Assembly (NCBI GenBank): GCA_024180945.1
Contig: JAKSGN010000005.1
Coordinates: 1,364,001-1,428,000, forward strand
Reading direction: 5' to 3'
DNA: 64,000 nt
From: Macrophomina tecta
Taxonomy: Eukaryota; Ascomycota; Dothideomycetes; Botryosphaeriales; Botryosphaeriaceae
How positions within the stretch are numbered: position 1 is the first letter of the stretch; each line of letters starts with the position of its first letter. Made by a program: the position numbers and the translations under genes. The notes under the pieces are model-generated. The model made no database searches. It worked only from the letters and a program-made list of their open reading frames with translations, and was not told where the DNA came from. Below, piece after piece: positions 14,044 to 56,227 of this stretch.

Positions 14044-17000
14044 ATGGCGCCCAAAGTCCAAACCACCCTCCAATTTCTACCTGAGAAGAAAGATCCAAAG
14101 CCTGCAAGGCCTGCACCTGCCACAACCAGCTCCTTTGGCTCCAAGAAACGGAAGAGCGATGAAGGAGTTTCCGGAAATGCGACGAAAAAGGGGAAGACGA
14201 ATAGAGGTCATTACTGTGCCGAGTACGACAGATTGAAGAAAGGATGCGAAGAGTATATGGAGCGGACTATCAGAGCCAAGGCAGAGAATAAGATCGACAT
14301 CGGCGCACGCCGTCTCAACCTTGCGGAAATGGCCCTTGCGATCCTCTCCGTCACCGAGAGGATCAGCCAGCACAGTGCGGTCAAGTTCTGCTTTTACGAC
14401 GCTGGGAACCATGCGAACATATGGTACGGCATGACGGAAATGAGCTTGGACACCAACAGGGATGATAAACCACTTTTGCTCCCATGGATCATTCGAAGTC
14501 AGCATGACTCGGGCGACGTCTTATACAATGAAGATACCACATTAGATCCCTCGCATAGTATCTTATGCGATGCCCGACCTGGAATGCAAGGGGATATGGA
14601 ATGCGTTTATGTCTATATTTACGACAGCTATCCGTCTCCCAACCGGAAAGATGCGGCCGAGGTGGAGCAGCAGGTGGAAGACTATCTGAAGAAGTCGTCT
14701 TGGTTCAAGCCGAACAGCGGCAGATACATCTTCCAATGGAGAGACAGCATAAAGCACACAATCACCCAAAAGGGCGGAGTAGGGTGTGGCTTCCACGTCA
14801 TCCTCAACGCCTGGATCCGGGCCTTTGGGCTCATGCCGAGCAAGGCTCACTTGAAGGCCATTGGAGACGAGGCATTCTATGAGGAAGTAGTACCACTCGT
14901 CCGCATGGCAATTCACGGGGCAGCATCATCCGATCTCATTTTCGCCTTCCTCGTCTGCCGTGGCTTTATTGGCCCCGATGTCGCGGTCGATGGAGACCGC
15001 AAATTCGGAAGAACAATTCCACTCCACAATGAGGACCACGCTAGAAAGCTGCTACCAAAGCTGAGGAACAGGGAAAATAAAAAAGGGCTACACGGTGCAA
15101 GCACCCCAACGGAATTGTCCGCAGCAAGGAAGCCGACCGAAGCCAACGCCGCATCCTCTGGATCCAGCGAGCCCCCCACGAAGAAGCAGAAGGCGCAGCG
15201 AGGAGCCCCCGATGAAGCCGTTCCCCAGAAGCCCAAAGACCAAGGCGGCGCGCCCAAGGCCCTCGCAAAGCTGTCCAGGGACGACTACTGCGCCTGGCTG
15301 GAGGGCAAAGGCAACTGCACAGCATCGCGCGCCGCGTGCCGCGAGAAGCTCGTCAAGAACCTCGAGCTCGCAGGCCTCGACGAGCCCATCGACCTTACGC
15401 CGCACCGGGACCTAGGCCTCTCGGAAATCGCGCTGGGCATCCTGAGCGTCACGGAGGCGATCAGCTCCGAGCAGGGAAACCGGCGGTTCTGCCTCTACGA
15501 CGTCCGGGCATGCGCTGCTGACGGCGTGCAGTCCGGACCGACCTCCTCCTCCTCCTCCTCCTCCGGCACCTTCCGCGGCGGATACCCGATCTTGATGCCT
15601 TGGGCCCCGAATGACGGAGAAGGAGCCAACCGGTACCTGGTGCACGCTTGCATGGGAGAGCGCGACGGCAAGCCAGTCGTGCGCTGCAGCATCTACACCA
15701 GCTTCCCCAGACCGGCCGCGAGAAATGAGGAGGACGCGGTGTACGACGCCATCATTATCCGACTGATAGAGTGCCGGTGGTACATGCGAAAAGAAAAAGT
15801 GAACTTTGATTTTTGGTGGTGGCACAGCAGGAGGAACACCGTCCAGCAGAGGGGGCGGACGAGCGGGTTCCACGTCCTCGTCAACGCCTGGATCCTCGCT
15901 CTTGGACTCCGGCCAAGCCAGAAGAACCTGAAGGCGGTGGAGGTGGATGAGCACTACCGGTGGATGACCGGGTTCATTGTGAGCGCTATCCACGGCTCTC
16001 TCTCCTTTGAATCGTTGCTCGCCTTCCTGGTCTGTGCTGGGTATGTTGACGCCGACGCGGTTGTGCCCGAGTACTGTAGGTTCACGTGGACGGCGCCGCT
16101 TCATTCTGCCCAGACGGTGACCGACAGGCTTGCCCGTAAAAGACTTGTGTATGGGAAAAAGCAAACCGAAGCCCAGGCTGGTAAGAATGGCCAGGTACAG
16201 GGTGGCGACAAAAAGGCAGGTGGAGAACCGGCGGTATACAAGGAGACGGTGCAGGCGACGGCGGAAGATGCGGCGAAGAATATGGGAAAGCAGCGGGTAA
16301 AGCCCGCCGCGAAGATTTCTCAGAAGGATGCACCTGCAGTGGACACAGGATCAAAGGGAAACAACAATGACGATCCTTGCGCATACTACAAGGCCCGTTT
16401 GTGGGAAGAGACGGGCCTAAAGGATAAAGTGTTGAAAGCGCTCCGAATAGAAGAGGTTGGCGTCCGATGGAACAAGGACTTGCAGGACACTGAAATAATC
16501 CAAGCGATTCTTGCTGTGACGGAGGCGGTGAGTCAACAGGGCACGACAAAGTTCTCTCTCTACAATCCAGTCCAATGGACTCACCTTGCCCAATTGATTA
16601 TGGCAAATGGGGCCGAGAAGTGGAGAGCTGTGGCCCAGGGGCAAGGCACCAAGTTCGACATGCACCGCCGCGACCGACCGATCATCATGCCATGGGGCAT
16701 CTACCACAATAGAAAGGCAACGAGAGCAGAGAAAGCGAAGTCGAAGCAATTTTTGGAGATAACCGGAACGGGGGGGCACCACATGCTTGTGATGGCATAC
16801 AGAGAGGCATCTGGAGACTCGGAGCAAATCCATGTGATGATCTACGACAGTCTTCCTCGTTACGCATTGATCAACCGCGAAGATACTCAAAGGCAGATAA
16901 AAGAGATGCTGAGCACGAGCTGGTCGTATCCGACGGATACAAAGTGGCTGTTCGAGTGGCCTCCGGTACTGCAGCAGCGGAGCTCAACGGGCTGTGGGAT

Positions 17001-20000
17001 AAACGCTATCCTTAGCGCCTGGTCACTCGCCCTGGGACTTCAGCCTCCCAGTGCTGCTCGGGGAAATAATATCAAAAAGACCCCCGACAAATTCTACAAG
17101 CATGCTGCGGACATAATTCGCTGTGCGGTGCACGGTACGGCCACGCTCGACACCATCATGGCTTTCTTCCGTTGCTGGGACTTCCTCGAGGATCCAAAGA
17201 AGGCAGTTGAGCCAAGTCGCAAGTTCAACAAGACCTTTGCCATCCAGACGGACTACGCGCTTCGAGATCTCATCGAGTGGAGAAGGAAAGTGAGTGAGGA
17301 CATCGCGAACGAGAAGCAGGCAGCCAAGCAAGTCGAAAACAACCCCAACGACGCTGCCGCTGCCGCTGGTCCTGCGAGTGCAGAATCCAACCCTCTCTTC
17401 AGCAAGTCTCCTCGTACCCGCAATCCTTTTTCTCTTCAATCAACCGCCCCCGCTCTCCATCCTTTTGGCCCCAAGTCCTCTCCGGGGATGCCCAAATCCT
17501 CTGGTCCTGGCCTCTTCGATTCAGACGCAACACTCGCTACCACAAGAGCTCAAGAAGCCGCCGCCGCCGCCGCCGCCGCCGCCACTGGTGCTGCCAAACA
17601 AAAACTACAGCAGCCAGAACCCACATCCGCACCTCCACGCCCACCCCCCTGCCTCTCCTGCCCCATCCCCGGCCACTGCCGAAAGGACCCCAACCCCAAC
17701 CAAAAGACGCCGCCAAAGAACGCCTCGCCCCCTCAGCCCAAAAGCCCGCGGGACGGCTGGCCGACGAGCGCGCGCCGCCCCTGGCTCACCGCCTCCTTCC
17801 CCAGCCTCCCTTACTACGCCGACGTCTACCACGGCGCGCCGCTCAAGAACTGGGTGCAAGCAAAGCACGCGCAAGCGCTGGCAGCAGGCTACTATCCCGA
17901 CCCCGTGCCGGCGGCGGTGCCGTGGCGGGACAAGCACCTGGACGCGGGTCTGATGGTGCGGGCGATGCACGCGGTGACGGAGGGGGTGAGCGCGCACGCG
18001 GGGCCGGACGACAGCGCGTGCTACTCGGTGAGCGCGTACGCGCGGGCGCGGGACGCGCAGGACGACAAGCGCATAGAGCTGACGGAGCGGGACGTCGCGG
18101 TCGGGACGCGGCAGCCAATGTGGTTCCCGCTGGTGATGCAGTGGAAGGAGCAGCGGCAGCTGATGCCTGGCGAGCAGGAGGTGCATCTGGTGGAGGTGTT
18201 TGTGGCCAGGGCGGAGGACATGTCCAAGTGCGTGGTGATGAACATCTTCACGGATGAGGTGGGAGGGAGGAGCCATGACGAGAGGCGGGAGGTGGAGGGG
18301 GACGCGTGCAGTCTGCTCAAGGGGCTCAAGTGGTGGGAGGGGCTGAAGGGGGATGGTGCGGGAGAGCTGCCTAGGGATCGGATCAAGTATGAGTGGGTCG
18401 AGACAAGACGTCGGAGCTCGAGAGCGGCGGGGAGTCTGCACGTCGTCCTGGATGCATGGTGCCGCGCACTGGGCCTCTGTCCTACCAGTAAGGAGCGCGA
18501 CAAGGCCTGTCTGCCGGGCGCGTCGAAGGAGGAGTACCAGGCGTACTGCGAGCAGCTGCACCAGCGCGCCGCAGAGCTGATAGCCAGAGTCGTGCACGGC
18601 TGTATCAATGCCGAGCAGCTGCTCGCGAGCCTGCGCGCCCTCGACTGGCTGGACGAGGACGGGCCGCCGATAGTCCTGGACGAGGCTGTGGCTTTCAAGA
18701 GCGCCGTCGCCTTCCCAGACGACAAGGCGCTGCAGGGCCACTTCGATGAGCTGTATCCACGGCTTCTTGGACCGGCGAGCACCGCTGTACCCTGGATCAC
18801 CAAGCCATTCGCTTTCACTCGGCCATACGACCCCTCCTTCGCAGGCAAAGCCCTGGACGACTGGCTGGACGAGCAGAGAGAGCATGCGTCTAAAACAGGC
18901 GCCTTTCGGCCGCTGGACTCCATCCCCCGAGTGCCGCGCGATGCGCACCTGTCCGACGGGCAGATGATTAGGGCCATCATGGCCGTGACCGAGGCCATCG
19001 GTCAACGGCACGCATGCTACGGCGTACGCACATACGAACGCGCGCGAAGCGGGGAGAGCGAGCTATCCAGTGAGGACGTGATCATTGGAAAGCGACGGCC
19101 CGTGTTTCTGCCGTTGGTGGTAGGGCAGCGGGAAGGCGTTGTTGCGCGGAGGGAGTGCGATGTTCATCTGCTTGAGGTGCATCACGACCGCATCAACTAC
19201 CCGGAGCAGCCGATCGTCATGCGCTACTGGACGGACCACATAGAGATGAGCCTCGAGCAGAAGGTACGGGTACAGACGGAAGCGATAAAGCTCGTCAGAC
19301 GACTCAAGTGGTGGCACGACGAGGAGGATGCGAGCGACGACGATAACAACGACAAGCTGTCCTGGTCTCGGCACATATGGACTCAAACAATGCACCGCAG
19401 CACCAAGGCCGCCGGTAGCCTGCATGTCGTTCTAGACGCGTGGTGCTCCGCGCTCAACCTCACGCCTAATGATACCGAGAGGGCAGAAGTGGAGAAGGCA
19501 AAGGTCGAGAAGCCTGAGGCGTATCAGAATCACTGGAAGAAGAAACACGAGATCATCGCGAGCTTAATCGACGTGGCAACTCAGGGCTGGATGAACGCCG
19601 AGCTGCTCGTCGCACACTTGCGCTCCTTGGACTGGGTGCGAGAAACTGGGCCGATAGATTTGAGGGCGAAAGGGAAAGAGGATCTGAACTTCAGGAGCGG
19701 CGTCGCCTTCCCGGACGACAAGGCGCTGCAGCAACATATTGACGGGAAGCTTCCAAGATCTTCTACACCAGACAGTGGTGACAAGGATAAAGATCAAAAC
19801 GACAGCGGAGACAGACCCACCTGTCTGAACTGTCCTGTCAACAATCACTGTGCCAAGAAAGACCGCCTTGTTGACGGCAATCCGATGAAGAAACGGAGCG
19901 ATACAATGCAGCAGCGAAAGTGGAAGCCCACGTTCTGGCCGGAAGTCCTAAAGGAATACCCGTGCCATTGCCAATTTGCCACGGAACGGCTCGAGACCCT

Positions 20001-21670
20001 GCGAGAGCTCGCAGGGTCCGAGGAGTTGAAAAGGGGATCAGAGAAGGTTGCAGAAGACTTCTCGTCGAAGAGAGGTTGGGCCTTTCCCGCGCTCATTCGC
20101 GCCATAGCCTCCGTTACTGAGGCTATCAGTATGAACGGATATCAAGGAAACAAGGACGAGAAAGCGTTATTCAGCCTGTATGACTGGAAGCTCTCTGAGG
20201 CCATGGCCGAGGAAGGCGGTTCAGGCAAACAGGCTCTGCGTCTGAAGAGCCTCGCATCTGGCGGCCGCCGCGGCAAGTGCGGCGAGCAGATAATCATTCC
20301 TCTCGCGTACAATCATCTCGTCACCGCGTCCACACGTAGGACGTCTGGAATCCCCAGACCGGAAATAACGCACTACTATCTTAATGATCCAACAGAACCC
20401 GCTCTTCCGAACGACGACATCAAAACACAAAAGGAAGGGGAGGCTGAGACTGTATTGGATGGCATGCACTGGTTGCACGGTCCCCTGGACATGACGCATG
20501 GCACACAACGCTACCATCACACCTGGTATTCTGTGGCGCCGCTGAAGCCTTTACCGGAATACAAAGAACTCGGGAACCAGAGGAAGGACACGGGGGCAGC
20601 GAAGCTCAAGTACTTGGTACACACCAGCCTGCATCTGGTGCTCAACGCATGGGTTATCGCCTTCGGATTTCGCCCGCCGACCACCGGCCTCCGGTTCACA
20701 GACTACGCTGACCTATGGGAGCTTGTCCTCTTGGCCTGCCAGGGTATCATCGACTCAGCGACTATGGTCGGACTGTTGCGCTGTGTGGGTTGGATACAGG
20801 GAGAGGGTTTAGATGTGCCGGAGTCAAGGCGATTTAACGAGACAGCACGGTTCGTCGATAATGAGCATATGAGCAAGCATTTCGAGTGGGTGAAGCTGCG
20901 GTCGGATCTCCTTGACCGGTGGAGCGATCTCCCTGCGGATTACCGGACTACGATGGAGAACTGGCATGAGAAAATGGAGGAGGCGAAGAGAAGATCGGCG
21001 GAGGATCCAGAAGACCCTCAGTCTTTAGCCGCCTGGTCAGCAGCAAACCATGCGAACATAGCATACGAAAATGCTGCTGCCAAGTGCCCAGAGGCCGACG
21101 CAATGTACAAGGAGGCTGCTGCCAGGTATAGCAAGGCGTTTGACAAGGACAAGCCATCGTCGAGCTACGTGCTCAATGCGAAGAGGGAGCTGCTGTATAC
21201 TCCTGGGTGCAGCCCGGCCTTCCTTGGTCAAGTGCCCAAGCTCATTGCGGAAGATGAGCAGAATGGGACGTGGGACGGGCGGAATGGAAAGGGTCAGGAA
21301 AGCATGGCTCGTGAGGCGAAGAGGCAGGCAGAGCGGGCGGAGAGGGCTAAGAGAGCGAATAAGGCAACCGAAACCTCATCCCTTGCGCTGGGAAAGAGAA
21401 AGAGAGATGAAAGGCTGCTGGTGGTGAATAGCGAGAGTGACGTGTACCAAGAAATGCTGACACAGCATAAGGGCAAAGGGCTGCAAAGGGTAAGTTGTCT
21501 CATGCTTCACGTCTTTCCCACTAAGTTTTCTAATATCTATTGCGCAGGCCAGACGGGAAGACCTTGCGAAGCTGTTTGAGAATCCACCACAAAACGTATA
21601 TGCCCCGAATATTTTTAGGCGAATGGTGGATGCAGCGGAGAGGTACTTTTTCGCGTATGAAAATGCGTAA
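14044..21670 (+). CDS. Giant protein with six tandem Ulp1/C48-like cysteine-protease-fold domains
   Basis: About 2522 aa, from exons 14044-21489 and 21548-21670. The first exon is an uninterrupted 7.4-kb frame. I do not know a named homologue. Six units of about 290-340 aa recur, near residues 56-343, 413-704, 776-1088, 1246-1575, 1583-1905 and 1958-2293. Each has an (I/A)xSVTEAIS-like helix, a PW/PL strand, a YDS-like strand and a GFHVxLNAWxxALGL-like helix. The order and spacing match the Ulp1/SENP (C48) fold, in which His, Asp, Gln and Cys act together. Unit 1 has His171, Asp194, Gln242 and Cys248; unit 3 has His913, Asp935, Gln978 and Cys984. The Gln-Cys gap of six equals that in yeast Ulp1. 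Units 2, 4, 5 and 6 lack the Cys. Two CLxCPxxxHC motifs (1203-1212 and 1927-1936) precede units 4 and 6. The tail is charged and includes GKRKRDER, a possible nuclear signal. Fold assignment is inference from motifs, and biological role is unknown. Confidence 0.7.
14209..20925 (+). repeat. Intragenic tandem domain repeat (six units)
   Basis: Units at about 14209-15075, 15280-16158, 16369-17310, 17779-18770, 18790-19760 and 19915-20925 share the SVTEAIS-type helix and the HVxLxAW helix at protein level. They are too diverged at DNA level to be a recent array, except that units 4 and 5 are visibly closer to each other. Low-complexity linkers (a poly-Ala tract near 17555-17590 and a poly-Ser tract near 15542-15564) separate or interrupt the units. 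Confidence 0.7.
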
Positions 21671-28446: not shown

Positions 28447-31400
28447 TCACCATGCCCTACGCTTCCCTTTCGAATTAACAACTGGGGCTAGGGCTGGAAA
28501 CTCTTCAGTCTCAGCTTCAGCTCCAAAATAGACCCCGCCTTCCTCCTCGTAGTACTCATCTCTTTCAACTCTGCTCCGTTCCTCCGCCAGACTCAACTGC
28601 AGCGCAAACTCCAAATCATCCATCTCTTTGTCTCTACTGGACTCCGCAACGTTGGCGTCAGACGAATCTGCAAGTGGTGTATGGCGTGAAGATGAACCTG
28701 ACGGGGAAGTCTTCCGGCTCTTGCTATATTTGATGCGCACGTTGAAATCACTCACGCTGGGCTGAGGCGTATCATCGAAAGGTGGAATCGGCGCTCCACT
28801 TCCTTGAAGACTCAATCGGATTGCCTCGGCAATATCTGCGTCGAGCTCCTCATCATTTTCAAGAGGAGACCTACCTGACGGCGTCAGAGTCGCAGGGATT
28901 GTAGGAGTCCCGCTCGAGACTGAGATAAATTCCTTCTTTCGCTTCTCTGCCTCATCCGCCAACGCCTCTTGTGATAGCAAAGTTGCGTACGCGAGAGCTT
29001 GTTCTTCGTCGTCGAGAAGGTCAACGCCAAATCGACCGGCAAGCCTATCTGCTTCGCGTTGTCTTTGGATTTCGTCCCTTTCCATCTCGTGTTTTTCGGC
29101 TGAGATGAAATCTTTGATCTTAGCACGTCCCGATGCTGAGAAGTTCGGACCAGCGCCTCCCCCATTACTGCCACGCTCGGACCGCCGGAGACGTCTTTTG
29201 TTGCTCTTGTACTGATCAGCGGCACTTGAGCTGAAACTCCAGTAACGCAGATGCGAACCAAGTGAGACCATACCACGGAGTACCGTTGGATCAGGATCAA
29301 GGCATATAGCACCAGCAGCGTATTCATTGATACCAACTCCTTGCGGAGAAGCTTGGGCTTGTCTTAATTGGCGTCTGGCACGGGATGAGAACCGGGAATG
29401 CAGCGTTCGAATAGGCTGTGTGCTGGATGCTAACGGATCCCAGGCTTGCACCAGTCCATCATTGCCGCCATGGACAAGATACAGTCCGGTCATAGCAAGA
29501 GAAGATATCTGAGGCGAATCCGTGTGGATAACGCGTACAGGCTCGATGGTGTTGACCAAATCCGAAGACTTCGCGACCGGGGCACGTATGTCCCAGATGA
29601 AGATGCTCCCAGTTTTGGTTCCGGCAGCTAGGAACCTCGCTCTTTGTCCAGGGACATCTTCGGGATTGGCCGGTTGACTTTGGTCAGAGAATGGCGATGC
29701 AAAAGGAGACGATGCTGTTGATGAACCAGAGAATCCGAAAATTGGGTCCTCCGACAAAGTCATCGTAGCGTAGGTCGACATGTCGAGAGCAGTCGTGGCA
29801 AGTTGGACTGATTTCATCCCGTTGAATGAAACAGTAGAGCATCTCCACTCCTCAACCAAACCAAGCCGCTCAGGTGACACAGTGCCGGAAGACTGGACCG
29901 AGGAATGGCGATGACGTGTCGTCGACTTTGGTACAACCGGATTATCCGAGCCGCCGAAGAGAGAAGGCGTTGGATTGTTTACAGTCTTGGCGGTATTCTT
30001 CGGCACCGACGTGCTCTCGGGTTGTACAGAGAGCTTGAGGCGCGTGAAACGCTTAGCAGATGCGGTAGTGTCCTCCTCCAGTCCACATTCGAACAGTACG
30101 ATAGCCTCTCCAGCATCATTGCCATCGTCTCCAGCGAAGTCCACTTCCATTCTTCTCCTCATATCCCATCCGAGACACATGGTCCGGAAGTCTATTGGCT
30201 TCATCCTTAGAAACGCGTTGATTTCGTGGGTTTCGGCCTTGATTTGTTGCTCACTGAGACACATGCCATTCCATGACGAGCGTGGAGAGTAACTTCCATC
30301 TACGGTTCTCTCACGGTAAGGGTCTGGCCTCGCAGTCCGCCTACTGGGCTCGACGATGTTCCAATAGACGGTGCGACCCGTAGTCCATGCAAGCCGGTCT
30401 AGAGTTGGCTCATCGGTCCGTGTGCTCTTGGCAAGGGCTGACCTCTTGGGGAACTTGGTAAGGTAAAAGAGCTCACCAAGGGCATTGAGGGCAATACACC
30501 AGATCCGGTTCTGAATCTGCCGCTGAGGAGAGTAGGAATCATCTACCGCAAGTGCGATGATCGGCACCCCAGGACTGAGCACCCAGCGCGCCGTGAGTTC
30601 TCCACGTGCCAAGCGCTTTTCTTGCAAGCCGGTCGTGCCTAGACTGTAGGCTGTGACCACGCCAGAAGATGAGCCGGCGAGCATTCCAACGAGTCCCTCT
30701 GACAGCGTGGGAATCGAAGCGGACTTTGCGATCCAAACAGACGAAATCGCCTCTGTGGAGGAGAGCAGCCGAGGGATTCCCAGCTCAGGGGAGTTGAGCT
30801 CGATTGGTAGAGAGAGGAATCTACCACGCATCTCTTCAACCGATCGATGGTATATACCGCCACCAGGGGATCCTTCACCGTGAATCATTCCATATGGCTG
30901 GCTGACATCCATGACATTTGGATTGCCGACGACATTTCCGGGACCAAGACCCCACTGAGATTCGCCTGGAAAGCGTTCGAAGAACTGAAGAAAGAATTGA
31001 GGGTCAGACAGCCCCCATCCGTCGGCCTTGCAAGCCGTGGGATCACTGGTCGACGCCATGCCAATATCATCAGCTCCGTGAATGAATAACGGGAGACGCT
31101 TGTTGAGCCCGGTACCGAAAGAGGCATGGAGATGATTCACTGGCGTGAATAATTGCGAGTTGTAGTCTACGGTAGGCAGAGGTGCCTGATTGGCATTCGA
31201 TCGCGAATTTCCGGACGTCGTCGGCGGCGCCATAGGCTTTCCACGACTAAGGGATCGCAGCAGCCGAGTGCGTAAGATGTACTCGCTTCTCCATGAGGCA
31301 AGCGCCGTGAGCCTCGCGAATGCGCGTCGGTCAGAGCGGAGGTTCTCATGGTCATCATCTGCAGCAAGGTAATCCACACCTGCAATTATCGAGTCAGGGC

Positions 31401-31973
31401 CGGGGAAATAGCGTGCGAATGCAACTCTCCAGGCATGAGGCGTCGTAACCAGCGAATGGAAGCGGCGGGACACCAGGGCAACTGCAGAGAGATCATTTGG
31501 CGGGAGGTGCGACAAGGCATGAGTCAAGATCTCTGAGAGATAATCAGCTTCAAGGCTATCACAAACTCGTCTCGCGAACGCGAAATACCGTTTGGCAGCT
31601 TCGCCACAGGCGAGCTCCTGTCTCCCGCCTTGCGATTCTTCTTGACAACTTCAAACACGGGGCCCTCTGGTTTTCTTTGTGGTGAGGCCAATAACGCGCT
31701 CTCGTACTCGGCGATGCGATTGACAGGCGGCGGACTAGGCTTCTTCAATCGAGCGCTATCATCGGCGTCGAGCTCACCGCGCGCGCTGGTGTCGGACAGC
31801 GCTTCACCGGCGGCGTTTGCTGCGTCGTCATGCGCTGCCGCCATGTTCCCAGAGCGGAGCGGGAGCAAACGATTTGAAGACTCGGGGCCATGCTGGGAGG
31901 CGACTGGTGCGGCTTCGGTCGCGACGGATTGAGTGGACGCGTTGGTTGGAACGTCAGAGAGCTCTGAGTGCAT
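28447..31973 (-). CDS. F-box / WD40 protein with C-terminal ubiquitin-interacting motifs
   Basis: About 1156 aa from exons 31973-31589 and 31532-28447. The 56-bp intron is needed to rebuild the F-box (LPNEILTHALSHLPPNDL, starting near residue 126). F-box proteins bind Skp1 and present substrates to SCF ubiquitin ligases. After the F-box come WD40-like blades, for example AGTKTGSIFIWDIRAP and VHGGNDGLVQAWDPLAS. The C-terminus has two UIM-like helices, LDADIAEAIRLSLQ and MDDLEFALQLSLAEE, which usually bind ubiquitin. The order F-box, WD40, UIM suggests an adaptor that both recruits and reads ubiquitinated targets, which is inference. A conserved charged helix (ISAEKHEMERDEIQRQREAD) precedes the UIMs. 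The gene is divergent from the aldo-keto reductase across 1.2 kb. Confidence 0.82.
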
Positions 31974-42048: not shown

Positions 42049-42504
42049 GCATGTAAAGCCAGCCGATGTATCATTTTTATTTTTTTTTTTTTCCTTATCG
42101 ATCATGCGTTTAGCGGGCGTTTGTCGGTCGGATACAGAGAGGCATGCATATAATACCATTTCGTTCGGGAATCATGCGCAGAAGCGAGGTTATGGGTTGA
42201 ATAGCACTGAGGACAAGTTCTGGATAAGATATCGAATACAATGGCAAATTTGACCACATCACTGACTTCCATGTACGTGATCCTGAAATTACGTTGTGAG
42301 TTTATGCACGTTAACCTCAGAGTTCGTCGGGCGTCCGCTGTGGCGAAGCTGGCGACGCGTGAATCAGGGTCCAGGCGCGTCGCGTCCCTTCAACTCGCCT
42401 CGCAACTCTTCGGCCTCACGCTTCACATCATCTCCGATGTTTCAGCCAAATGTATGAAGTTCATTCTCAATCACTACGACTGCGACCGCTCATCATCTCT
42501 CGCA
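42049..42504. other. Intergenic region / 5' leader of the next gene
   Basis: It contains the dioxygenase 3' UTR with a T-run near 42080. The frame of the next gene stays open back to an ATG at 42241, but those residues show no conservation-like pattern. Confidence 0.5.
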
Positions 42505-45336
42505 ATGGCCGCATCGAAAAACAGATCAGCGCACTCGCTTCCCTCAGACGCATCGGTACTCGAATATGCTCGCTACCACGGCATCTGCAGGGACTACGAG
42601 AATGACCATCCGCTCGAGCCTCTCCACCTCCCGCGAGCTCCGATGTTTCTATCCCAGGATCTTGCTGATACGACAGGTTGCTCAAAGCTCTGCCTGCCCC
42701 AGCCTCCCGACTCGTCAGACCGTCTGGAAATCAACGCAGCGGCCGTTGCTGAGCTGGCGTCGATCTTGAAACCACCACAAGCTCCCCAAAGTGCGGCTCG
42801 ATATTCAAACCCACAGCGTTTCAGAGACTTCAAAGTGGACCCACCGATCTTGACAACTGACCACGAACTTGACACATTCAAACTCCGGAAGCGTGACAGT
42901 CTACGCCTATCTGACGTGCACCTTCCACTAGAGCATACAGAGGAGGACAGGGATGAAGGCCTTCAATGGCCTTCATGGTGCGATGAGCTTGTTTCAAAAT
43001 TTGACAAAGAGATTGCATCCGATAAATTGTGCGTCCCGAAAGAAGTGCTGCTCTACTTACATTCAATCCTCACTCAACCCCCGAAATCTGAAATTCCAGA
43101 ATCTCCGCCACAGATGACGAAGAAGGTCGAGTCATTAACACCTCCACTTCTGCCATCTGATCCCCCGTTCATGCATGTCTCTGACCCACCATCCTCTTCG
43201 TCAACGGGGCAGATCCAGTTACTATCTGAAGCAACCAACTCCACAGCTGCTGAGGCCGACGCCCTTGAGGTCAAGGTATTGCAACAGGATAGAATCGACA
43301 CACCAGGCACTCCGGGTTTGAAACAATTCATCGATGATCCCATGCTGCTTGATAGCATTGAGGGGTTTGAGCTTGAGGAATCGACCCATCCACTTCCGTC
43401 GCGACGTCACGCGGCTACTCTCAAAGTTGAGGTTCCGCTCACTCCTCCTTCAACGTTTCCTTCAGCCCTCTGCTCCTCCGTTGAGTTCAGCAACTCAATG
43501 TCATTTCCCGACGCGGTTCTGGAGATCGTCCCGTATGCAACTGAGCTACCCTCCAAATATAAGAATGGCAACGACGTTCTCGATTCGGAGAATGACTTGG
43601 ACGTTTTCTTCCAAGAACAGGTTGCACCTGTAGCTGAGAAGGCAGATCGTCAAGTTGAGTATGAAATACTTCAGGAAGTGGACACAACCAAGCGCGTCGA
43701 AGTCCCCAGTGTTGACTTTGAGCCGCTCATAGCGCCATGGGACGAGTACAGTCTGAAGCCTTCTTTAAAGAAAGACGGGATTCACACAGAAATTGACGCG
43801 CAAAGGAGGCTTCTATTTCGCTGTGCGCTCGAGGAAGTTGTAGTCGTTCCAAAGTGGCACGAGTCAATGAAGCAGGAGATGGGAATGCTTTGGAATCCTC
43901 TCCCGAAAAACTTCGACCAAGCTGCGCTTACGGAATCGATCAGGCATGACACGGCGTTGAATCAAGTGATCGGCAATTCATCGCTGGGTGACGTGGGTAT
44001 TATCGATTGCGACTCACTTGTCTGGAAGCTCGAAGGTCTTCGAGTCCTTGATGACGCTGAAGATATTGAAGAGATTTCGGCATGGCACTTTGAGCCTGGG
44101 AACGACATGGCTTCGCTTTTACAGCAGCGGAGACTCGAGATTGCTGACGATGGAGACCACAGAGGAATTCGACCCGCAGTGCCCGTTGCAAAAGATCCTG
44201 TCATTGCGACGCTCGCGAAGAAACGAAAGCGGGCAGTTGACGGGCCTCATCAGAGATCTAGTAATGGAGACTATCTCTTCAAAGGCTTCTTCTCTACTTC
44301 GGGCTCTCTGGACCAGTTCATGCATGCTCAAACCGGGAAAGGACTTCCAGATCCAGATACGAACCATGAATCCCCAGAAGAGCATGGCAAAACAAACAGA
44401 TCGACGCCATATTTGGGAAACGATGCCGATATGCAAGACGAAACTCCCAGGCAGGCCCCCGGAACGAAACACAACACGCCGCGTGCACATCCTCTCCCGC
44501 CGCCGCTGCTACCCACCACCCTCCCACCCAAGCCCTTCATCATTTCGACCTCCCTTCTCACCCGCCGTCGCGCTCTGATCCGACAAATCCAAACCCTCTA
44601 CCCCGCTGTCCACCTCACCGAACGCGACACCACCAAGCCCCTCCTCCTCTCCCCCACCACCACCCCTTCCGCCGACCCAGACATCATGCTCTCCCCCTCC
44701 ACTGGCCTCCTCCTCACCACCCTCCAACACATCAAACAGCGGCCGCTCCCCGGACAGCAGCAAACTCTCAATAGCGTACAACAGCCCCTCCAAACGCAAA
44801 TCGCCCTCAGCGCCCGCAAATTCGCCCGCCTCCTCGTCCTCGTCAGTGAGGGCGTCGCTGCTCCCCCTCGACTCCTCGACGCCCGCGACTGCGCTGCCCT
44901 TGCCTCGCTGAACGGCTTCGTCGCGAGTATCCGGGCGGCAACCGTCACCGTGTTGTACGTTCCGGGTGGGGAGGAAGAACTCGCGCGCTGGGTAGTCGCA
45001 GCGATGAGCGCACATGGACGGACGGCAGAGGAGTTGGTGGGGGAGGCAGAGGACGACGTGTTGAGTGTGCTGCAGGAGGAGGAGGGGCTGTGGGAGCTTT
45101 TTCTACGGCGGGCGGGGATGAACGCGTTCGCGGCGCAGGTGGTATTGGCAAGGTTGAAGGAGGAGAAGTTGGAGCGGAGCAAGGGGTCGGACAGGGGTAG
45201 AGGGTTTGGATTGGTGGAATTTGTGCGGATGGGGGTGGTGGAGAGGATGGAGACGTTTGCGGATGTGGTGGGCGGTGGGGATATGCTTGGGGTTGTGGGG
45301 GAAAGGGTGGATAGGGCGTGGATGAGGGCGAAGTAG
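42505..45336 (+). CDS. Large hypothetical protein, possible Zip2/SHOC1-type (XPF-like) meiotic protein
   Basis: About 943 aa in one exon. The chosen ATG at 42505 opens MAASKNRSAHSLPSDASVLE; an in-frame ATG at 42241 would add 88 residues that look like non-coding DNA. The N-terminal two thirds is acidic and mostly unstructured, with a conserved-looking segment VLEYARYHGICRDYENDHP and a helix KEVLLYLHSILTQPP. The C-terminus reads like an XPF-type nuclease-fold domain: DIMLSPSTGLLLTTLQHIKQ, then ARKFARLLVLVSEG, VTVLYVPGGEEELARWVV and a helix-hairpin-helix-like WELFLRRAGMNAFAAQVVL. The catalytic ERKxxxD of active XPF enzymes is not seen, which is the situation in Zip2/SHOC1, meiotic crossover proteins. 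This is a fold-level guess; an uncharacterised DUF protein is the alternative. Confidence 0.5.
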   Translation: MAASKNRSAHSLPSDASVLEYARYHGICRDYENDHPLEPLHLPRAPMFLSQDLADTTGCSKLCLPQPPDSSDRLEINAAAVAELASILKPPQAPQSAARYSNPQRFRDFKVDPPILTTDHELDTFKLRKRDSLRLSDVHLPLEHTEEDRDEGLQWPSWCDELVSKFDKEIASDKLCVPKEVLLYLHSILTQPPKSEIPESPPQMTKKVESLTPPLLPSDPPFMHVSDPPSSSSTGQIQLLSEATNSTAAEADALEVKVLQQDRIDTPGTPGLKQFIDDPMLLDSIEGFELEESTHPLPSRRHAATLKVEVPLTPPSTFPSALCSSVEFSNSMSFPDAVLEIVPYATELPSKYKNGNDVLDSENDLDVFFQEQVAPVAEKADRQVEYEILQEVDTTKRVEVPSVDFEPLIAPWDEYSLKPSLKKDGIHTEIDAQRRLLFRCALEEVVVVPKWHESMKQEMGMLWNPLPKNFDQAALTESIRHDTALNQVIGNSSLGDVGIIDCDSLVWKLEGLRVLDDAEDIEEISAWHFEPGNDMASLLQQRRLEIADDGDHRGIRPAVPVAKDPVIATLAKKRKRAVDGPHQRSSNGDYLFKGFFSTSGSLDQFMHAQTGKGLPDPDTNHESPEEHGKTNRSTPYLGNDADMQDETPRQAPGTKHNTPRAHPLPPPLLPTTLPPKPFIISTSLLTRRRALIRQIQTLYPAVHLTERDTTKPLLLSPTTTPSADPDIMLSPSTGLLLTTLQHIKQRPLPGQQQTLNSVQQPLQTQIALSARKFARLLVLVSEGVAAPPRLLDARDCAALASLNGFVASIRAATVTVLYVPGGEEELARWVVAAMSAHGRTAEELVGEAEDDVLSVLQEEEGLWELFLRRAGMNAFAAQVVLARLKEEKLERSKGSDRGRGFGLVEFVRMGVVERMETFADVVGGGDMLGVVGERVDRAWMRAK

Positions 45337-51657: not shown

Positions 51658-53362
51658 ATGCTCATAAGCCTGGCACGGTCCTGGGCCACCACCCTCGCCC
51701 GGAACCCACGCCGCTTCACCACTGCTGCCGTGATGGCGCGCGACTACAATGTGCGTCTCATGGAGCCCTCCGCAGCCACCCCCAACTAATGCTTCGCAGG
51801 CCGCAGTCACTGCGCTCAACACGCTGCAGAGCAACTTCTCCATTGTCGACGCCATCCGCAAGTCCGGCCGCGGCATGAACAAGAATGCCATTCCCGAGAT
51901 GATTGAGTGGTTCCAGAAGGCCGGCTACGAGGTGTGCGGCTCCCCGTCCACCCACCATCCGCCTCTCCACCGCTGACCGAGTCTCCATTACCAGCCCTCC
52001 GACTTCGACCGGTTGAAGCCCATCCACATTGCCGGCACCAAGGGCAAAGGCTCAACAAGCGCCTTTGTTTCCTCTATCCTCGCCCAGTATCAGGCCTCCT
52101 CCGAGCCCGCCCCCAAGAAGATCGGCCTATACACCTCGCCGCACCTGAAATCGGTCCGCGAGCGCATCCAAATCAACAACACCCCGCTGAGCGAGGAGTC
52201 CTTCGCCAGGTACTTTTTCGAGATCTGGGACAGGCTGGAGGATGCTGCACGCAAGGAAGGCCAGGACCCGGCCGCCCCGGGCACGAAACCGGTCTACTTC
52301 CGCTTCTTAACCATCATGGCCCTGCACGCTTACCTGCGCGAAGGCGTCGACACGGCCGTCATCGAGTGTGGCATCGGCGGCGAGCACGACAGCACCAACA
52401 TCATCGTCCACCCCACCGTCACCGCCGTCACCAGCCTCGGCATCGACCACGTCGCCATGCTGGGCAACACCCTGCCCGAGATCGCCTGGCACAAAGCCGG
52501 CATCTTCAAGCCCGGCGCCGCCGCTCTATCCGTCCCCCAAAGCCCCGAGGCCATGACCGTCTTGCGCGAGCGCGCTGCCGAGAAGGGTGCCGAACTGATT
52601 GAGGTCGCGCGGCACCCAGAAATCGACGGCATCCGCCTCGGACTGGCCGCCGACTTCCAGAAGACCAATGCCAGCCTGGCCATCGCCATCGCGGCCTCGC
52701 ACCTGCGCGCCCTGGGCAACGCGAAAATGCCCGCGCCCACAGCCCTCAACACCTGGCCCCTCCCGTCCGAGTTCCGCGCCGGTCTCGAAAGCGTGCGCTG
52801 GCCCGGCCGCTGCGAGATCCGCCGCGAGGACCGGGTCGCCTGGCACATAGACGGCGCGCACACGCTCGACAGCATCGAGGTCGCTGGCCGCTGGTTCGCC
52901 TCTGAGATTGCGAGCAGCGCGTCTACCCCGCCCTCACCAACCTCCCAACCACGCATCCTCATCTTCAACCAGCAAACCCGTGACGCCGCCGCCCTGGCCA
53001 GAGCCCTCCACGCCGCCCTGCAGGCCGGTCTGGATGCGCAGAAGCCCTTCACACACGCGGTTTTCACCACTAACTTGACCTTCCAGGAGACGGGCTACAA
53101 GCCTGACCTGGTCAGCGTGAATACGAATGCGGATGATGTTGAGAAGCTGGCCGTGCAGGACGCCCTGGCACGGACATGGCAAGACATTGATCCACAGACT
53201 GAGGTTAAGGTCGTGCGGACGATTGAGGAGGCAGTGGCGTACGCAAGGGGAGTTGCTGCGAAGGCGGAGGGGTTGGAGGAAGGGAATCAAGTTATGGTGT
53301 TGGTGACGGGGAGCTTGCACCTGGTGGGTGGGGTTTTGGAGGTTTTGGATAGTGGGAAATAG
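51658..53362 (+). CDS. MET7: Folylpolyglutamate synthase, with candidate mitochondrial and cytosolic starts
   Basis: Adds glutamates to folates, needed for folate retention, one-carbon metabolism and methionine synthesis. The protein is 530 aa from exons 51658-51750, 51800-51931 and 51995-53362. Seen: the P-loop IAGTKGKGSTSAFV, YTSPHLKSVRERIQIN, the VIECGIGGEHDSTNII loop, LGIDHVAMLGNTLPEIAWHK and HIDGAHTLDSI. Exon 1 begins MLISLARSWATTLARNPRRF, a likely mitochondrial signal, and a second in-frame Met (MARDYN) at 51733 could start a cytosolic form, as known for FPGS in other eukaryotes. The C-terminus VTGSLHLVGGVLEVL is typical. Confidence 0.92.
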
Positions 53363-54038
53363 AGAACGTGTACCGTTGGCGGAAGACATAGTGGAGATTG
53401 AACACAAGAGTGGCTCGATATAAGAGTGCCTGGATCGTTCTACACACTGGGTTTGTGGTACAAAGGGGATATAGAGGCATAAATTCATTTGGCTGCAAGG
53501 CCTTTCTTTGTTCTAGATTTTGCTCAGTAGTTTTGATGTTCGCTTTGATCGAAACGCTGACAAGCTCCGTGCAGATAATCTCACTTCCCCAACATGGCAT
53601 CCGGTTTCTTCAGAATTATATTCAAAGAAGTAATACTGTGATGGTGCACGAGTAATTAACGAGCTTGACTCAATTTCACTGATGTAGAACTGGATTCCAA
53701 CGTTGGTCAACGCGATAGTGACTTTGCCCCTTTCCAAGGTAAAACGTATGGCACGTCGAAGTAGCAATATCGTGCATGTTTTCTTACACAATTATGCTGT
53801 TTACAGTGACATCAGGCTCAGAAAAAAGTTTCCGGCCTGTACATAAAGCGGTAATAGATACAAAAAAAAACCCGTCACGGCTCAGGGGCTCACCCAAATA
53901 CCTTTTGTTATATACCCTGGACTCAGACACGAGTCCCTAGTCAAAGTTATGATGCCGGGGCGGTAAGAGCTACATCGAAGGCCCATTTGCCACGTCTTTT
54001 GACGACTGGAACCCGCAAAACAAAAGAGAAAAAGATAT
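53363..54038. other. AT-rich intergenic region, no supported gene
   Basis: Downstream of FPGS the base composition shifts to AT-rich. Only short motif-free frames are present. Confidence 0.5.
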
Positions 54039-54150
54039 TGACGAGGGTGGGACTCGAACCCACGAGGATTGCTCCACTAGTAGATCCTTTTCGGAACTCT
54101 GGATTCCAGATGTCCTGAAACTAGCGCCATAACCACTCGGCCACCTCGCC
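54039..54150 (-). tRNA. tRNA-Leu(CAG) with intron
   Basis: On the minus strand the acceptor stem GGCGAGG pairs with CCTCGTC (one G-T pair) and is followed by discriminator A. The A box reads TGGCCGAGTGGTTATGGCG and the T arm GTGGGTTCGAGTCCCAC carries the B box. The anticodon stem CTAGT/ACTAG encloses TT-CAG-G followed by an intron of about 31 nt. A long variable arm (type II) and the CAG anticodon give Leu. The exact intron ends are approximate. Confidence 0.88.
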
Positions 54151-54542
54151 GGAGGAGCCTACAAGTCTCTATTGGATGTGGAATTATCCAATTGTTGGTA
54201 GAGCAATTGGAAACAAAATATATATCTTCAGTCAGTGGACAACAACTAGGTCTCCAAAAACGTCCTCCCTTTTCAGAGTGGCTAAGTCAGCCTGCTTTAG
54301 AAGTGCAAGAATGTTTTTCGTAAGTGGTTTACTGTACTATTAAGCATAATTCCTTACTTTAGGTAAAGGGGAGTAAATTCTTTACGTCAATAATACTAAC
54401 TAATTATTGGAATGGAGCAAAGGGACGGAACTCGTCCAGTTACTCTATATTGCTAGGGAGCCTCTTATACCCCCACCCCCTGATGTTAGGGTTGGTGGAA
54501 CTGACGCATATATCTAACACTTATAATTCTACGGTCAGCGGT

Positions 54543-54777
54543 TTATCTCATTCTAAGAACGTAGCGTAACAACGTAGAAATCATTTTGTATATTCGAAAA
54601 GGTTCTAAGATTGTTACAGCGCGGCGACCTTGTTGGGTTTCAGTCGTTGCTGCAAAGCCATTCGGCCAACCTCCCACCGACTGCGAGTAGCTAGTCAGTC
54701 GACAAAAGGTACAGCAATAACCAGCCTGGTGGCTGGTTTGCCCTAACAACTCTATATACAGAGGCGTGTCCGTAACA
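54543..54777 (-). mobile_element. Candidate solo-LTR relic, copy A
   Basis: Read on the minus strand it begins TGTTACGGACACGCC at 54777 and contains GCTGTACCTTTT and GGTTGGCCGAATGGC, which recur in copy B. The TGTTACG start is usual for fungal LTRs. The far end is uncertain and could extend to about 54370, where a TATAAGAGGCTCCC-like stretch lies. No internal coding domain is seen. Confidence 0.45.
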
Positions 54778-55508
54778 GAGATAAGGTGCTCCCGACGAGG
54801 AGTCTAGTAGGTAATTTTCCACGGAACGGGGTATAAAGTCCCACACTATAGAGTAAGATATATCTGTTGATAAATCATATGCCCTCTAGTCGTAGTGTGT
54901 AAATTTCTGTCTTTGAGTGATGGTGTAAAACAGCTTCTCTTTACTTTTTAACCTGATGTCCTTTACGCTTTCTCTAGAAAACTCGTACGATATATTACTA
55001 GACATTGCTCTGAATAGGAACCAAAATATCCAACCAAAGGATGAATGTACTTCGCGGGGTTTATGAGAGTGCTTAAGATGTGATGTAGATTATTAGAGCT
55101 TTCCAGATGTCTTTCGGGGCTGATGCAATGTGGAGAGGCTTCAGATCCATTAATTCTACATTCGTTTTAGCAAGACTGCATAATGGTTATCGCCTACATA
55201 CATGCTTATTTGTCAGGAATAATAGGTGTAATGCCATGGTTATGTACGTTACCCTTTGTTAATCAAGCAGGATCTCTTGCAGAGACAATCCATCACTACT
55301 GTTATGGTGAATTGACTCCAGATCTCCAGATAATCCACCTTCTCGGACAAAATCATTCGTGTGCCTGACAATTTGCAGAATCAGACGCTCTAGATTGCCA
55401 TCAGGTTGTGGGTGTGGCCTTGAGTCCTGCTTAGTTTCGGGGGACCTGGAATATACCATTGAGAATCCTTTCAAATTGGAATATATAGTGACTGCACGGA
55501 AGGCATCC

Positions 55509-55780
55509 TGTTACGAACCTTCCGGTGTATAGAGTTGTTGGGGAATTATCAACCACAAAATCGATCATTGCTGTACCTTTTACCGACGGGCAGTCGATGG
55601 AAAGGTTGGCCGAATGGCATTACAGCACCGACTGAAATCCAGCACGGCCGGATCGTTGTAACTCGGCCAAGATACCTGCATCAGATCGGTGCATATCTAC
55701 GTATGATATGCATCCTCAGCAGGAATGTTCGCAAGGTGCTTACCAACACGATCTTACAGAAGCTACGACAAGCAGTGTGA
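55509..55780 (+). mobile_element. Candidate solo-LTR relic, copy B (inverted relative to A)
   Basis: Starts TGTTACGAACC at 55509 and aligns with copy A through TAGAGTTGTT, GCTGTACCTTTT, GGTTGGCCGAATGGC and a final GTTGTAAC. Many differences are transitions, as expected after RIP. The right end is approximate. Confidence 0.45.
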
Positions 55781-55913
55781 GGCCTGAAGATATCTCGAGA
55801 CCATTTTATTGACCACTACCCAAGCTCCGCTTAATGCTTGGTGTCCCTGTCTCCTAGCAGCAGTGTTTGTCCCTGGGTCGCGGGGAGTGCTAGGCAGTGT
55901 TCAAACGCCCCGC

Positions 55914-55957
55914 AAAAAAAAAAAAAAAAAGAAAAAAAAGAAAAAAAGAAAAAAACA
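55914..55957 (+). repeat. A-rich low-complexity tract
   Basis: About 40 bases almost entirely A with scattered G, ending before an ordinary-looking sequence that leads to the second tRNA gene. Confidence 0.7.
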
Positions 55958-56227
55958 CCCCTTCATCAACTCCGCTTCCCCTCTCCTGTACAGCGTTCCA
56001 AATCAGTGCCCACATACATTCTACCCACACCACCGCATACATGCACTTCCCGTCAGCTGTCAACTACCCGGCCAAGCCATTTTCCCATCCAGTACTCTCA
56101 TTCTGCCTCAAGCTTTATGGTGTTCCACCGAGCCTCGCTTACCGCCGCCTTGCCCTCTCGTCCCCTCCCGCCCCCACCGGGCAAAACGCAAAGCTCCACA
56201 ACAGCCTGGACAAAGGCAAAAAGATAT

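What the first reader, a model, noticed from the sequence alone, without database searches (positions are those of the whole stretch)
14044..21670. Giant protein built from six tandem Ulp1/SENP-like domains, two with an intact catalytic set
Within one 2.5-kilo-residue protein the same fold recurs six times. Units 1 and 3 have His, Asp, Gln and Cys in C48 order (H171/D194/Q242/C248 and H913/D935/Q978/C984) with the Gln-Cys spacing of Ulp1, while units 2, 4, 5 and 6 have lost the Cys. Ulp1/SENP enzymes normally carry a single catalytic domain. A chain of active and dead domains suggests a multivalent binder or processing scaffold for SUMO or another ubiquitin-like protein, or a defence or effector-like factor. 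The fold assignment is from motif and spacing only.
Basis: partly seen in the sequence, partly recalled or inferred. Interest (0 to 1): 0.88.

Follow-up and report, generated by a model that had tools for sequence, protein, structure and literature searches.

The report
Giant fungal chain of protease domains
A fungal gene holds a single roughly 2,500-residue protein in which one domain, predicted to have the fold of SUMO proteases, occurs six times, two copies keeping all four catalytic residues and four having lost the catalytic cysteine, so it likely works as a multi-armed binder and cutter of ubiquitin-like tags.

Summary
The six-unit repeat is real. AlphaFold models of an active unit (3) and a dead unit (5) both have CE-clan proteases (Ulp1, SENP, NEDP1) as their top-ranked matches. 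Units 1 and 3 carry His, Asp, Gln and Cys; units 2, 4, 5 and 6 lack the Cys. The histidine of unit 3 is H912, not H913. The gene has one 58-nt intron and ends at 21670. The near-identical counterpart is MPH_09440 of Macrophomina phaseolina MS6.

A four-unit relative of unknown organism (P0003) and a five-unit one in Massariosphaeria (P0002) exist. The tree sorts window and P0003 units into four classes and Massariosphaeria units into a separate clade. Dead units have lasted: unit 6 and its P0003 partner are the most alike pair (49.5%).

Best reading: a probably nuclear, multivalent receptor for a ubiquitin-like modifier, with two cutting heads and four binding-only heads. The caveat is that both tryptophans that line the Gly-Gly tunnel in Ulp1 are missing in all six units, and the curated C48 Pfam model does not match. 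An ordinary de-SUMOylase is therefore not shown, and the substrate is open.

The parts
14044..21489 (+). Exon 1 (2482 codons) of the six-unit gene
   Evidence: Open frame; splice donor GTAAGT at 21490; spliced product about 97% identical to MS6 P0001
21490..21547 (+). Intron, 58 nt, GTAAGT...GCGCAG, branch-like CTAAT at 21530
   Evidence: Leaving it out reproduces the C-terminus of P0001
21548..21670 (+). Exon 2 with stop codon
   Evidence: Translation matches the end of P0001
14200..15114 (+). Unit 1 (res 53-357), class A; complete H171/D194/Q242/C248
   Evidence: Alignments A1 and A4
15277..16158 (+). Unit 2 (res 412-705), class A; His, Asp and Cys lost (N, T, S)
16366..17373 (+). Unit 3 (res 775-1110), class B; complete H912/D935/Q978/C984; also keeps the Asp aligned with Ulp1 D451
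17761..18828 (+). Unit 4 (res 1240-1595), class C; dead (no Cys, Gln to Arg)
   Evidence: tree
18835..19833 (+). Unit 5 (res 1598-1930), class C; dead
19936..20973 (+). Unit 6 (res 1965-2310), class D; dead; most alike of the window/P0003 pairs (49.5% to unit D)
17650..17679 (+). CLSCPIPGHC, Cys-Cys-His-Cys knuckle-like motif (res 1203-1212) ahead of unit 4
   Evidence: Also at res 780 of P0003 and res 1196 of P0001; metal binding is inferred
19822..19851 (+). CLNCPVNNHC, second such motif (res 1927-1936) ahead of unit 6
   Evidence: Also at res 1134 of P0003 and res 1927 of P0001
20974..21489 (+). C-terminal region with basic and conserved stretches (res 2311-2482)
   Evidence: Conserved in P0003; P0002 ends in a thioredoxin domain instead, and no counterpart was searched for there

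Best explanation
The gene holds a protein with six diverged copies of one domain, predicted to share the CE-clan fold of Ulp1/SENP proteases, two with a complete His-Asp-Gln-Cys set and four without the Cys, and it likely works as a multivalent receptor for a ubiquitin-like modifier in which dead units would grip conjugated tags while units 1 and 3 would cut them. Shown by calls: six homologous units, residue sets, gene structure, relatives, and persistence of dead units in a diverged relative. Predicted: the fold (models of units 3 and 5). Inferred: cysteine-peptidase activity of units 1 and 3; binding of a ubiquitin-like protein by the dead units, by analogy with catalytically dead Ulp1, which binds SUMO at nanomolar affinity; nuclear location, from basic N-terminal stretches. 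Because the Gly-Gly-tunnel tryptophans are missing, the tag or its tail probably differs from that of an ordinary SUMO protease.
Against: W515 of Ulp1, which follows the catalytic His and lines the Gly-Gly tunnel (PMC9603560), is absent in 15 of 15 units; W448 is present in 1 of 15, a Massariosphaeria unit. All five canonical C48 genes that the PF02902 search found in this genome have His-Trp. The Asp that Ulp1 needs for SUMO interaction (D451, PMC3216068) is kept in units 3 and 5 only, of the six here. Pfam PF02902 matches neither the protein nor any of the 11 units scanned. Foldseek E-values are modest (3 matches at or below 0.001 for unit 3, none for unit 5). The window/MS6 comparison does not show special constraint on dead units: counting substitutions alone they differ at 29 of 1329 sites against 15 of 552 outside the units (p 0.50); only when gaps are counted do they differ less (32 of 1329 against 26 of 552, p 0.012). 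No binding or activity data exist.
Confidence: 0.42

Rival explanations
1. Units 1 and 3 are cysteine peptidases, but of non-Gly-Gly targets (as adenain or viral CE-clan proteases are). The array would be a substrate-specific processing enzyme whose dead units hold the target protein rather than a ubiquitin-like tag.
Confidence: 0.2
2. The whole array is a structural scaffold: even units 1 and 3 are no longer used as enzymes, and the repeated fold serves protein-protein contacts in the nucleus.
For: Most units are dead (4 of 6 here). The dead pair u6-D is the most alike. The Asp of the canonical DCG motif and the tryptophans are lost even in the active units.
Against: A complete His-Asp-Gln-Cys set survives in each of three diverged proteins: window units 1 and 3, P0003 B and Massariosphaeria U3, i.e. 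4 of 15 units. Neutral decay would not be expected to spare the same four residues.
Confidence: 0.22
3. Units 1 and 3 are acyltransferases or dual acetyltransferase-peptidases in the manner of YopJ or ChlaDUB1, which use the same CE-clan triad.
Confidence: 0.07
4. A domesticated mobile-element protein or a recent gene-prediction artefact.
For: Papers on Crypton, Ginger and grapevine transposons hold the term Ulp1 (listings only); that such elements can carry C48 domains is recalled.
Against: No second copy was found by DNA or protein search of the 54-Mb genome. No transposase domain over its cut-off (the MS6 protein has a sub-threshold DDE match, 14.8 bits against 25.1). Intact and about 97% identical in MS6, with full-length relatives.
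Confidence: 0.04

Closest known systems
Ulp1/SENP SUMO proteases (MEROPS C48), best single sequence match Chaetomium thermophilum Ulp1-like protease 6dg4
   Same: Predicted fold of units 3 and 5; order and spacing of His, Asp, Gln, Cys in units 1 and 3; the NA..LALG helix after the Cys
   Different: Six units instead of one; four dead; no His-Trp and no Trp-Leu-Asn-Asp in the window units; no Pfam PF02902 match; 10-16% identity to SENP/Ulp1 rows for unit 3
UTAG, engineered dead Ulp1 C580S SUMO trap (PMC3216068, PMC5774762; passages seen)
   Same: A C48 fold without its Cys, proposed to bind a ubiquitin-like tag
   Different: Engineered single domain with an otherwise intact binding surface; here natural, multiple and much diverged
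NEDP1/Den1 NEDD8 protease (SENP8)
   Different: Single domain; His-Trp present in this genome's likely orthologue (L005; orthology read by eye)
Polyserases, human proteins with tandem serine protease domains (title of a cited reference seen in PMC7804941; that some of their domains are inactive is recalled)
   Same: Active and inactive protease domains in tandem on one chain
   Different: Trypsin fold, extracellular (recalled); unrelated sequence
Active/pseudo pairs Rpn11/Rpn8 and procaspase-8/cFLIP (PMC10211241, passages seen)
   Same: A dead homologue assists an active isopeptidase or protease
   Different: Separate chains and other folds

Membership tests
CE-clan cysteine protease fold | Papain-like CE fold with the Cys at a helix N-terminus and the His and Asp on adjacent strands | tested here: met
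   By prediction for units 3 and 5; the other four units by homology only. Coordinates not inspected.
MEROPS C48 (Ulp1/SENP) | Match to the curated Pfam model PF02902 | tested here: not met
   No match for the protein or for any of 11 units, of which six are from the window; the genome search with PF02902 finds six other places and not this locus.
MEROPS C48 (Ulp1/SENP) | His-Asp-Gln-Cys with Gln six residues before Cys | tested here: met
   In 2 of 6 window units, and 4 of 15 units over three proteins.
MEROPS C48 (Ulp1/SENP) | Tryptophan after the catalytic His (Ulp1 W515) that lines the Gly-Gly tunnel | tested here: not met
   0 of 15 units; 5 of 5 canonical C48 genes found in the same genome have it.
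MEROPS C48 (Ulp1/SENP) | Tryptophan equivalent to Ulp1 W448 | tested here: not met
   0 of 6 window units, 1 of 15 overall; also replaced in some canonical paralogues here (C in L002 and L003, Y in L004/L006).
SUMO-binding C48 domain | Asp equivalent to Ulp1 D451, needed for SUMO interaction (PMC3216068) | tested here: inconclusive
   Kept in units 3 and 5 of 6; absent in 1, 2, 4 and 6. The N-terminal alignment at this identity is uncertain.
SUMO/UBL isopeptidase | Cleavage after Gly-Gly of a ubiquitin-like protein | not testable with these tools
   Needs purified protein.
YopJ-type acetyltransferase (C55) | Acetyl-CoA and IP6 binding with the CE triad | not tested
   Only weak fold-list entries.

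The most novel reading that the evidence does not exclude
Dothideomycete fungi have at least twice built giant C48-fold arrays in which naturally dead protease domains act as built-in traps for chains of a ubiquitin-like modifier, handing them to one or two living domains whose opened tail tunnel accepts a modifier or tail that ordinary SUMO proteases do not cut.
Probability: 0.25. Interest if true: 0.85.

Novelty: new variant of a known kind. Interest (0 to 1): 0.62.

Why it matters
Dead Ulp1 was turned into a SUMO trap in the laboratory; this protein may be the same trick found in nature, repeated and wired to active heads. If so, it shows how a deconjugating enzyme evolves into a multivalent reader, and it supplies ready-made binding modules. 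If not, conserved catalytic residues in a fold that has lost its Gly-Gly clamp point to a new substrate class for the CE clan. Either outcome can be decided with recombinant single units.

Tried and rejected
Considered and rejected: a mobile-element gene (no second copy; no transposase over cut-off); a frame artefact; bacterial or viral origin (viral-contig scan with A2: 6 pattern stretches, none a relative; genome-contig scan with unit 3: 12 stretches, none a relative; both have limited reach).

Led nowhere: Pfam on the whole protein and on units; phmmer of the whole protein against the PDB, 0 hits; protein search with 11 single units, which found no relative of about 180-590 residues among the 7995 candidates scored, so no one-unit ancestor was found but none is excluded. 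YopJ-type entries do not appear among the 50 listed VIA-align rows for either model, which does not exclude them.

Literature: searches showed no described protein with several C48 domains. Mostly titles and abstract starts were seen, and one search listed 15 of 21, 8 of 28, 10 of 383. The one paper with the words 'tandem Ulp1', PMC10779208, means neighbouring genes in Colletotrichum, not domains of one chain (passages). PMC1913524 lists three Entamoeba Ulp1 peptidases, each with one His-Asp-Gln-Cys set and His-Asp spacings of 17, 36 and 17 (passages).

Order of duplication is not settled: u1+u2, u1+P3_A and u2+P3_A, and likewise the three C-class pairings, are not rejected. Position-by-position orthology with Massariosphaeria is rejected for U3 with class B (p 6e-5) and U5 with class D (p 1e-4); U4-U5 with class C is borderline (p 0.055). 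These groups were named after the tree was seen.

My first count against MS6 left out 36 residues and counted gaps, and seemed to favour dead units over linkers (p 0.015). Redone on all 2522 residues, the substitution rates do not differ (p 0.50). I dropped that argument and lowered confidence from 0.45 to 0.42, raising the scaffold rival from 0.20 to 0.22.

In the 15-unit alignment a Cys of P0003 unit D falls in the Cys column. I read that as an alignment shift, because a Thr stands just before the conserved Gly-Leu-His there (sequence). Likewise the His of unit 4 in the His column may be a shift by one.

Full report
WHAT IS THERE. The window lies in a 54.1-Mb, 37-contig genome. The protein's best match is MPH_09440 of Macrophomina phaseolina MS6, family Botryosphaeriaceae. 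After aligning the spliced product, 2452 of 2529 columns are identical, 21 columns having a gap. One source's name for the MS6 protein begins 'Ubiquitin-like protease fam'. The ORF at 14044-21579 has 2511 codons. A 58-nt intron at 21490-21547 with canonical ends joins it to an exon ending at 21670, and the resulting C-terminus is that of MS6. DNA and protein searches find no second copy in the genome. I scanned 20 of the 158 listed frames of the window, this gene apart, with Pfam; 9 have a match over a curated cut-off. These are ordinary fungal genes: a Zn2Cys6 regulator beside sugar-transporter exons on the left, and an F-box protein, Nup49, a DUF7102/SAM protein and metabolic enzymes on the right.

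SIX UNITS. Units at residues 53-357, 412-705, 775-1110, 1240-1595, 1598-1930 and 1965-2310 align in MAFFT. Pairwise BLASTP links all six, from 1e-59 (u4-u5) to about 1e-3 for the weakest pairs, the weaker matches often covering only the region around the former Cys.

RESIDUES. In the 15-unit alignment the complete set His, Asp, Gln, Cys is present in units 1 and 3, in P0003 unit B and in Massariosphaeria U3, 4 of 15. P0003 unit A and Massariosphaeria U4 keep His, Asp and Cys, but have E and H in the Gln column. The catalytic His of unit 3 is H912. The Trp that follows His in Ulp1 is absent in 15 of 15 units and present in 5 of 5 canonical C48 genes found in this genome. PMC9603560 (passages) states that W448, S513 and W515 with the triad form the tunnel around Gly-Gly. 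The Asp equivalent to D451, whose change to Asn abolished the two-hybrid interaction of dead Ulp1 with SUMO (PMC3216068, passages), is kept in units 3 and 5 of the six.

RELATIVES AND HISTORY. Three protein searches gave three relatives: P0001 (MS6), P0002 (Massariosphaeria phaeospora, Pleosporales, 2537 aa, five units plus a C-terminal thioredoxin domain) and P0003 (1692 aa, four units, source without organism). Each search scored only the roughly 8000 candidates sharing most words; the one with single units found nothing. The tree of 15 units gives four classes shared by the window and P0003: A (u1, u2, P3_A; 97/94), B (u3, P3_B; 100/99), C (u4, u5, P3_C; 100/100) and D (u6, P3_D; 100/100). 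The five Massariosphaeria units form one clade (98/96). The program warns that the C and D classes are long branches that meet, and that Massariosphaeria U1 is long; neither bears on the four classes themselves. So the six-unit chain corresponds to a four-class plan with A and C present twice, and the Massariosphaeria chain was probably amplified separately. For its U4-U5 a shared origin with class C is not firmly rejected (p 0.055). Which lineage gained or lost copies is not settled.

DEAD UNITS PERSIST. C- and D-class units lack the catalytic set in the window and in P0003, so the loss most simply predates their split. Identities between the two proteins are D 49.5%, B (active) 41.5%, u5-C 40.6%, u1-A (active) 39.6%, u2-A 37.6% and u4-C 34.9%: dead units are about as conserved as active ones. 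The closer comparison with MS6 is too shallow to add to this: by substitutions dead units differ at 29 of 1329 sites, active at 12 of 641 and the rest at 15 of 552 (dead against rest p 0.50). With gaps counted the rest differs at 26 of 552 and dead units at 32 of 1329 (p 0.012). No codon-level test was possible.

HOW IT MAY WORK. A catalytically dead Ulp1 domain binds SUMO1 with Kd about 12.8 nM and binds SUMO2 chains (PMC3216068, PMC5774762; passages). By that analogy dead units would bind ubiquitin-like tags, the chain of units giving avidity, while units 1 and 3 would cut. Basic N-terminal stretches in the window protein, P0002 and P0003 suggest the nucleus (read by eye). Against the simplest form, the lost tryptophans imply a changed tail tunnel, so the modifier or bond may not be the usual SUMO Gly-Gly. 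Rival readings are a peptidase of other targets, a pure scaffold, and an acyltransferase.

VERDICT. The fold reading is well supported, while the function is inferred. I file it as a CE-clan, Ulp1/SENP-like array, not as a proven C48 member, because two tested C48 features (Pfam match, His-Trp) are not met.

Noticed in passing
window 17650-17679 and 19822-19851: Two CxxCPxxxHC motifs stand ahead of units 4 and 6. They are kept at corresponding places in P0003 and MS6 and not found in P0002; possible small metal-binding knuckles.
   Followed up: partly
L002 and L003 (G000:C21:417210-420578 and G000:C10:193477-196845): Two loci, 95.3% identical over 3369 aligned bases, each with an open frame of about 1090 codons carrying a canonical Ulp1-like domain: a recent duplication, perhaps mobile cargo. 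Ulp1 genes on Colletotrichum minichromosomes are described in PMC10779208 (passages).
   Followed up: partly
P0002 residues 2417-2499: The Massariosphaeria five-unit protein ends in a thioredoxin domain (5.7e-6); either a real fusion or a merged gene model.
   Followed up: no
window 53001-56000: G+C falls to 0.43-0.49 in a window that is otherwise mostly 0.50-0.68.
   Followed up: no
window 42241-45336: 1031-aa open frame with DUF7102 and a SAM-like domain.
   Followed up: no
window 28447-31527: Minus-strand 1026-aa open frame with an F-box and WD40 matches below cut-off.
   Followed up: no
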